Position numbers and translations under genes: made by a program. Below are positions 20,168 through 20,216 of a DNA stretch of 48,687 bases, in pieces. Source of the DNA: Candidatus Magasanikbacteria bacterium RIFOXYD2_FULL_41_14 (GTDB lineage: Bacteria > Patescibacteriota > Patescibacteriia > Magasanikbacterales > GWA2-37-8); the NCBI GenBank assembly GCA_001784475.1, contig MFRE01000012.1:768-49454 (forward strand), given 5' to 3'. Position 1 is the stretch's first letter, and each line of letters opens with the position of its first letter. The notes under the pieces are model-generated. The model worked only from the letters and a program-made list of their open reading frames with translations. It did not search any database and had not been told where the DNA came from.

Positions 20168-20216
20168 GTACTGTTACGTCAGTACTTAGTATAAATAATA
20201 ATAAATATTTTGTCAA
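20168..20216 (-). promoter_or_regulatory. trpR-trp operon promoter with TrpR-operator-like palindrome
   Basis: Minus-strand TTGACA (20216-20211), 17-nt spacer, TATACT (20193-20188); palindrome GTACT-N8-AGTAC at 20168-20185. Confidence 0.85.

What the first reader, a model, noticed from the sequence alone, without database searches (positions are those of the whole stretch)
20168..20216. TrpR-operator-like palindrome placed on the trpR promoter
Promoter TTGACA-17-TATACT directly upstream of trpR is followed by GTACTG-TTACGT-CAGTAC, i.e. GTACT-N8-AGTAC, overlapping the expected start site. From memory, the E. coli trp/trpR operators have the same half-sites and spacing (e.g. GTACTCTTTAGCGAGTAC at trpR). 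This implies autoregulation of trpR and, because trp genes follow in the same direction, repression of the whole operon.
Basis: partly seen in the sequence, partly recalled or inferred. Interest (0 to 1): 0.8.

Follow-up and report, generated by a model that had tools for sequence, protein, structure and literature searches.

The report
TrpR operator plus tryptophan attenuator, Patescibacteria
A tiny-genome Patescibacteria (CPR) bacterium seems to switch its tryptophan genes off in two ways, with a repressor site on the promoter of the repressor's own gene and a leader peptide with two adjacent tryptophan codons between that gene and the enzymes, much like the textbook E. coli circuit in a different layout and a lineage where I found no report of it.

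Summary
The palindrome is real. GTACTGACGTAACAGTAC lies 2 bp downstream of TTGACA-17-TATACT on the trpR promoter (minus strand). The gene behind it is TrpR-type: it has the R54/R84/G85/Q68 signature, and the genome carries a separate YerC paralog. The site is conserved. Of 21 TrpR-bearing genomes of the same order, 14 have an exact GTACT-N8-AGTAC within 120 bp upstream of trpR and 19 are within two mismatches; 0 of 13 YerC upstreams reach two mismatches, and shuffles give an exact hit in 0.03%. Many relatives carry two sites 8 bp apart. E. coli trpR has the same half-sites and spacing (fetched, not recalled). So TrpR autoregulation is strongly supported, though not shown biochemically. Fourteen of 21 relatives have such Trp-rich leaders (shuffle rate 3%). 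In 11 of 17, a stalled ribosome flips the fold to antiterminator (1.2 expected). All six genomes of the order that have TrpC carry TrpR. The operon is O-trpR-trpL-trpEGDCFBA. Known kind of circuit, new lineage and arrangement; Rfam's Trp_leader misses all of them.

The parts
20188..20216 (-). sigma-70-type promoter of trpR: -35 TTGACA (20216-20211), 17-bp spacer, -10 TATACT (20193-20188)
   Evidence: direct reading; 11/12 consensus; TTGAC boxes at similar distance in most orthologs
20168..20185 (-). TrpR operator GTACTGACGTAACAGTAC (GTACT-N8-AGTAC) over the expected transcription start
   Evidence: conserved upstream of trpR orthologs; same half-sites and spacing as E. coli trpR operator
19873..20157 (-). 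trpR, 94-aa TrpR-type repressor
   Evidence: PF01371 65.5 bits; residues; AF2 model pLDDT 90, TM 0.70-0.73 to E. coli TrpR 1trr/1tro and 0.84 to 3frw
19818..19871 (-). trpL leader peptide MVHNQKTNLTWWSQMSP*, tandem Trp codons TGGTGG at 19841-19836
   Evidence: equivalents in 14/21 relatives by strict rule
19833..19837 (-). attenuator region 1 (GGTCT), pairs with region 2
   Evidence: inferred from complementarity
19808..19816 (-). attenuator region 2 (GCAAGACCG), directly after the leader stop codon, so covered by a terminating ribosome
19777..19785 (-). attenuator region 3 (CGGGCTTGC), inside the terminator hairpin; pairs with region 2 (antiterminator, -14.2 kcal/mol when RNAP has reached this point)
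19763..19792 (-). intrinsic terminator ACCGCCGCGGGCTTGCCTGGCGGT + U-run, about 11 bp before trpE
   Evidence: hairpin -13.8 kcal/mol
18393..19751 (-). trpE
   Evidence: PF00425/PF04715
17785..18396 (-). trpG
   Evidence: PF00117
16777..17778 (-). trpD
   Evidence: PF00591/PF02885
15960..16802 (-). trpC
   Evidence: PF00218
15335..15958 (-). trpF
   Evidence: PF00697
14049..15299 (-). trpB
   Evidence: PF00291
13104..13901 (-). trpA
   Evidence: ORF; its homologs close the trp operons of relatives

Best explanation
A dually controlled, autoregulated tryptophan operon. With ample tryptophan, the TrpR-type dimer binds the palindrome that overlaps the -10/+1 region of its own promoter and blocks RNA polymerase, lowering trpR and everything downstream (inferred from sequence and conservation). 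Transcripts that escape pass trpR and reach a 17-codon leader ORF. When charged tRNA-Trp is plentiful the ribosome runs to the leader stop, covers region 2, and the region 3:4 hairpin with its U-run stops transcription just before trpE. When tryptophan is short the ribosome stalls on UGG-UGG, masks region 1, region 2 pairs with region 3, the terminator cannot form and trpEGDCFBA is made. Shown here: the sequence elements, their conservation, and the mutually exclusive folds in relatives. Inferred: binding, Trp as corepressor, ribosome stalling.
For: Operator conserved at trpR promoters: 14/21 exact, 2 one-mismatch, 3 two-mismatch; YerC upstreams 0/13 within two mismatches; shuffles 0.03% exact. 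Several have two sites offset by 8 bp, the tandem arrangement named for E. coli TrpR/operator half-site crystals (1trr title). Trp-pocket arginines (E. coli R54, R84) and G85 kept; YerC has Ile/Val85. All six genomes of the order with TrpC above cut-off encode TrpR (21/88 carry TrpR). Leader peptides with W-x0-2-W after trpR in 14/21, shuffle rate 2.8%, YerC 1/13. Attenuator logic: ribosome at the leader stop gives a terminator in 17/17; ribosome stalled on Trp codons gives an antiterminator in 11/17 against 1.2 expected. In two relatives trpR with an exact operator is linked to trpS instead, one with a WWW leader.
Against: No biochemistry. The window protein is a long branch (tree) and differs from E. 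coli TrpR at contact or pocket positions (A80M, T81K, T83S, S88E); engineered S88Y variants are crystallised with indole-3-acetic acid (titles), so corepressor affinity may differ. It scores below the NCBIfam TrpR equivalog cut-off (50.6 against 67.25). The window operator lacks the inner GTAC of the relatives' tandem sites. In the window the full-length stalled RNA still folds best as terminator (-19.1 kcal/mol); the antiterminator is best only while RNAP has not passed region 3 (-14.2). Trees and counts use related genomes, so loci are not fully independent.
Confidence: 0.85

Rival explanations
1. Only TrpR repression is real; the leader ORF and hairpin are an ordinary terminator and spacer between trpR and trpE.
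For: The window's fully transcribed leader favours the terminator whether or not the ribosome stalls; Rfam Trp_leader does not match.
Against: Trp-rich leader ORFs recur in 14/21 trpR loci, with antiterminator folds in 11/17 against 1.2 expected; a constitutive terminator in front of trpE would silence a complete operon.
Confidence: 0.1
2. The regulator is a TrpR-family protein that senses another ligand (YerC/HisR-like histidine repressor or another indole) and its target site only resembles a TrpR operator.
For: S88E and other pocket substitutions; below the TrpR equivalog cut-off; the TrpR family contains histidine repressors (HisR = YerC, PMC9413887).
Against: A separate YerC-type paralog exists in the same genome; Q68/G85/R54/R84 are TrpR-type; operon genes and leader codons are all tryptophan-specific; half-sites equal those of E. 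coli TrpR.
Confidence: 0.07
3. The palindrome is a chance or purely structural inverted repeat (for example an mRNA 5' hairpin) at the trpR start.
For: Exact GTACT-N8-AGTAC occurs about once per Mb in this genome and in the reversed-pattern control.
Against: Position and half-site letters are kept across divergent orthologs while the 8-bp centre varies; absent at YerC genes.
Confidence: 0.02

Closest known systems
E. coli TrpR operator / trpR autoregulation and trpL attenuator of trpEDCBA
   Same: GTACT-N8-AGTAC half-sites on a sigma-70 promoter; short leader peptide with WW, 1:2/2:3/3:4 RNA logic and U-run terminator before trpE
   Different: E. coli trpR is unlinked to the trp operon and trpL precedes the first operon gene; here trpR is the first gene and the attenuator lies between trpR and trpE, so trpR escapes attenuation; Rfam RF00513 finds E. 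coli (93 bits) but none of the 17 Patescibacteria leaders
Chlamydia trpRBA and the C. caviae/C. felis/C. pecorum trpR-trpB... operons
   Same: trpR first in the operon, TrpR-controlled promoter, proposed TrpL between trpR and the enzymes; C. felis TrpL has tandem Trp (PMC3937554, PMC7755916)
   Different: Chlamydial TrpL is long (40-59 aa), unverified and disputed, and C. trachomatis uses YtgR in the same gap; Patescibacteria leaders are 15-22 aa with clear competing folds, and the window operon encodes a complete trpE-A pathway
Simkania negevensis trpR-trpEGDCFBA operon
   Same: trpR first, complete pathway (PMC3937554)
   Different: only 18 nt between trpR and trpE and no TrpL listed there
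YerC/HisR histidine repressor (PF01371, TIGR02531)
   Same: same fold and protein family
   Different: Tyr68, Thr79, Ile/Val85 instead of Gln68, Ile79, Gly85; no GTACT-N8-AGTAC upstream

Membership tests
Trp repressor superfamily PF01371 | profile score above gathering cut-off | tested here: met
   65.5 against 27 bits
TrpR equivalog TIGR01321 | NCBIfam equivalog score cut-off | tested here: not met
   50.6 against 67.25 bits; so called TrpR-type, not a TIGR01321 member
TrpR (functional type) | Trp-pocket residues R54, R84, G85, T44 | tested here: met
   all four kept; R44 and G74 invariant, T34 and R73 at least 90% in 87 homologs
TrpR (functional type) | Ser88 of the corepressor pocket | tested here: not met
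   Glu in the window; Glu, Met, Ala or Thr in relatives
TrpR (functional type) | operator GNACT-N8-AGTNC at own/trp promoter, conserved | tested here: met
TrpR (functional type) | L-Trp-dependent DNA binding | not testable with these tools
   needs EMSA/ITC
TrpR (functional type) | fold of E. coli TrpR | tested here: met
   six helices, TM (query) 0.70-0.73 to 1trr/1tro; 3frw higher at 0.84; Foldseek E about 0.005, so the fold does not separate TrpR from YerC
YerC/HisR (TIGR02531) | profile cut-off and Tyr68/Ile85 residues | tested here: not met
   20.3 against 42.2 bits; Gln68, Gly85
ribosome-dependent trp attenuator (TrpL type) | short leader ORF with tandem Trp codons upstream of trp enzymes | tested here: met
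ribosome-dependent trp attenuator (TrpL type) | intrinsic terminator with mutually exclusive antiterminator | tested here: met
   17/17 terminator, 11/17 antiterminator when stalled; in the window itself only before RNAP passes region 3
Rfam Trp_leader RF00513 | covariance model gathering score | tested here: not met
   no hit in window or relatives; positive control E. coli 93 bits
ribosome-dependent trp attenuator (TrpL type) | Trp-starvation-dependent read-through | not testable with these tools
   needs reporter or RNA-seq

The most novel reading that the evidence does not exclude
Patescibacteria carry a portable tryptophan-sensing cassette (TrpR operator + trpR + short Trp-codon attenuator) in which a repressor sets initiation and a leader peptide sets elongation for whatever gene follows: the full trp operon, a long-form trpB, trpS, or a PEP-synthase-like gene. 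The two-tier logic would then serve salvage and tRNA charging in host-dependent cells, not only biosynthesis.
Probability: 0.5. Interest if true: 0.7.

Novelty: new variant of a known kind. Interest (0 to 1): 0.55.

Why it matters
Patescibacteria are usually described as minimal and poor in amino-acid synthesis. Finding the classic two-tier tryptophan circuit here, in the trpR-first layout debated for Chlamydia, suggests that fine amino-acid sensing is kept or regained even at about 1 Mb, and gives many natural variants for testing how repression and attenuation are combined. The leaders escape the Rfam model, so this regulation is probably under-annotated across the group.

Tried and rejected
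A protein search of viral contigs found no relative. The first alignment was too diverse for the contig scan; a narrower one worked. A wider TrpR regulon in this genome: one-mismatch operators are near the reversed-pattern control, and the aro cluster upstream region has neither operator nor Trp leader. T-box or Rfam leader: no credible hit. The pattern-based terminator scan missed the hairpin because its effective loop is long; folding recovered it. The automatic terminator picker mis-set two loci (L015, L017); they were set by hand. Phylogeny cannot place E. coli TrpR safely (long branch), so vertical against horizontal origin is left open. Literature searches for TrpR or trp attenuation in CPR/Patescibacteria returned nothing on point; only open-licence papers are held.

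Full report
Observation. The minus strand at 20216-20157 reads TTGACA-17-TATACT-AA-GTACTGACGTAACAGTAC-10 bp-ATG. The promoter is an 11/12 consensus match. The palindrome is the only exact GTACT-N8-AGTAC in the window and in the 1.095-Mb genome. The pattern itself is expected about once per Mb, so its value lies in its place and conservation.

The gene. The 94-aa product scores 65.5 bits to PF01371 (cut-off 27), 50.6 to NCBIfam TrpR and 20.3 to YerC, both below their equivalog cut-offs. Aligned to E. coli TrpR it keeps T44, R54, Q68, I79, R84 and G85; twelve YerC proteins of the order have Y68, T79 and I/V85. R44 and G74 (E. coli R54 and G85) are invariant, and T34 and R73 (E. coli T44 and R84) are kept in at least 90% of 87 homologs. 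The genome has a second, YerC-type paralog. YerC has been reassigned elsewhere as the histidine repressor HisR (PMC9413887). The AlphaFold model (pLDDT 90) matches TrpR-family structures, with 3frw at TM 0.84 and E. coli TrpR at about 0.7. Position 88 (Ser in E. coli) is Glu here, so the pocket is not identical.

Conservation of the operator. The order holds 88 genomes; 21 carry TrpR-type genes. Within 120 bp upstream of the start, 14 have an exact operator, two one mismatch, three two mismatches; none of 13 YerC upstreams is within two. Dinucleotide shuffles of the same sequences give an exact match in 0.03% and two or fewer mismatches in 8.7%. Relatives often have two overlapping sites offset by 8 bp, e.g. 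GTACTACTGTACTAGTACATAAGTAC. In MG1655 the trpR site GTACTCTTTAGCGAGTAC and the trp operon site (one mismatch) were read directly. Related named contigs are Candidatus Magasanikbacteria, with further TrpR-type genes in Uhrbacteria, Taylorbacteria and Peri-/Peregrinibacteria.

The overlooked attenuator. Between trpR and trpE lies ATGGTACATAACCAAAAGACAAACTTAACTTGGTGGTCTCAAATGTCTCCTTAA = MVHNQKTNLTWWSQMSP*, then AGCAAGACCG, then a hairpin ACCGCCGCGGGCTTGCCTGGCGGT and a U-run ending about 11 bp before trpE. Region 2 (GCAAGACCG) can pair with region 1 (GGTCT, overlapping the second Trp codon) or region 3 (CGGGCTTGC, inside the terminator). With region 1 masked and RNAP at the end of region 3, the 2:3 fold is -14.2 kcal/mol against -13.8 for the terminator.

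Attenuator in relatives. Leaders such as MNHHKNNQTWWWTVHI, MKKNITSNLKWWQAFPNR, MNNTLYTMQIAWWWTVFWR and MKNNQTVQFWWWTVSWR follow trpR in 14/21 loci by a fixed rule (ATG start, 8-35 codons, two Trp within four residues); shuffles give 2.8% and YerC 1/13. In 17 loci with a leader and terminator, masking by a ribosome at the leader stop leaves the terminator in 17/17; masking by a ribosome on the first Trp codon makes the antiterminator the best fold in 11/17, against 1.2 expected when the upstream segment is shuffled (the P value there assumes independent loci). The window is one of the six where the full-length terminator still wins, so there the switch would have to be kinetic. Rfam Trp_leader hits E. 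coli (93 bits) but none of these.

Link to tryptophan. TrpC above cut-off occurs in 6 of 88 genomes of the order and all six carry TrpR. Where checked, complete operons run trpR-(leader)-trpEGDCFBA; in one genome the assembly breaks between trpR and trpE. In two others trpR with an exact operator is linked to trpS, in one of these (G035) with a WWW leader; elsewhere the next gene is trpB, a long-form trpB or a PEP-synthase-like gene.

Comparison. The parts are those of E. coli; the layout (operator, trpR, attenuator, enzymes) resembles Chlamydia, where a TrpL between trpR and trpB has been proposed for C. felis and disputed for C. trachomatis (PMC3937554, PMC7755916). A regulon survey of Proteobacteria found TrpR only in gammaproteobacteria, with trpR and trpE as the core (PMC5343134). 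No paper in the held library describes TrpR or trp attenuation in Patescibacteria.

Verdict. Binding, corepressor identity and ribosome stalling are inferred.

Noticed in passing
window 1-20250: The same-genus genome G001 lacks trpR and TrpC; its ortholog of the window methyltransferase (86% identity) is followed 23 nt later by aroB, whereas in the window about 19.8 kb lies between these genes (DAHP synthase, aroE, aroQ, aroK, aroA, mod/res-like genes resembling a type III restriction system, a radC-like gene, trpA to trpR). A tryptophan/shikimate island gained or lost within the genus.
   Followed up: partly
L073:2990-3200, L076:3330-3520, L085:585-830: A conserved element of about 120 nt with nested inverted repeats (AAATATCCC...GGGATATTT, GAAGATCTTT...AAAGATCTTC) between the leader terminator and the next gene (PEP-synthase-like or haem-oxygenase-like); no Rfam match.
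   Followed up: partly
L064 (G035), L029 (G048): trpR with an exact TrpR operator followed by trpS (tryptophanyl-tRNA synthetase), in G035 with leader MKNNQTVQFWWWTVSWR: repressor plus attenuator on a tRNA synthetase gene.
   Followed up: partly
L081, L086, L091, L095, L113 (Peri-/Peregrinibacteria): TrpR-type genes with GTAC-rich palindromes downstream of trpR, before an anthranilate-synthase fusion or an unknown gene followed by an Asp/Glu-racemase-like gene; in L081 and L113 the downstream gene has a WW leader.
   Followed up: partly
L153:2874 (G046:C5:61373): GTACTAGCGTACTAGTAC directly after a TATACT box, between rpoC and purN, with no trpR or trp gene nearby.
   Followed up: no
L155:1987 (G021:C4:2186): GTACTGTTGTACCAGTAC in a genome with no TrpR-type gene found, beside a 6-phosphogluconolactonase-like gene; possibly a relic of a lost trpR locus.
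   Followed up: no
window 44849-45248: tmRNA gene with an unusual long tag ANLLSKAKAMLASAFGGGCCLAPTLA.
   Followed up: no
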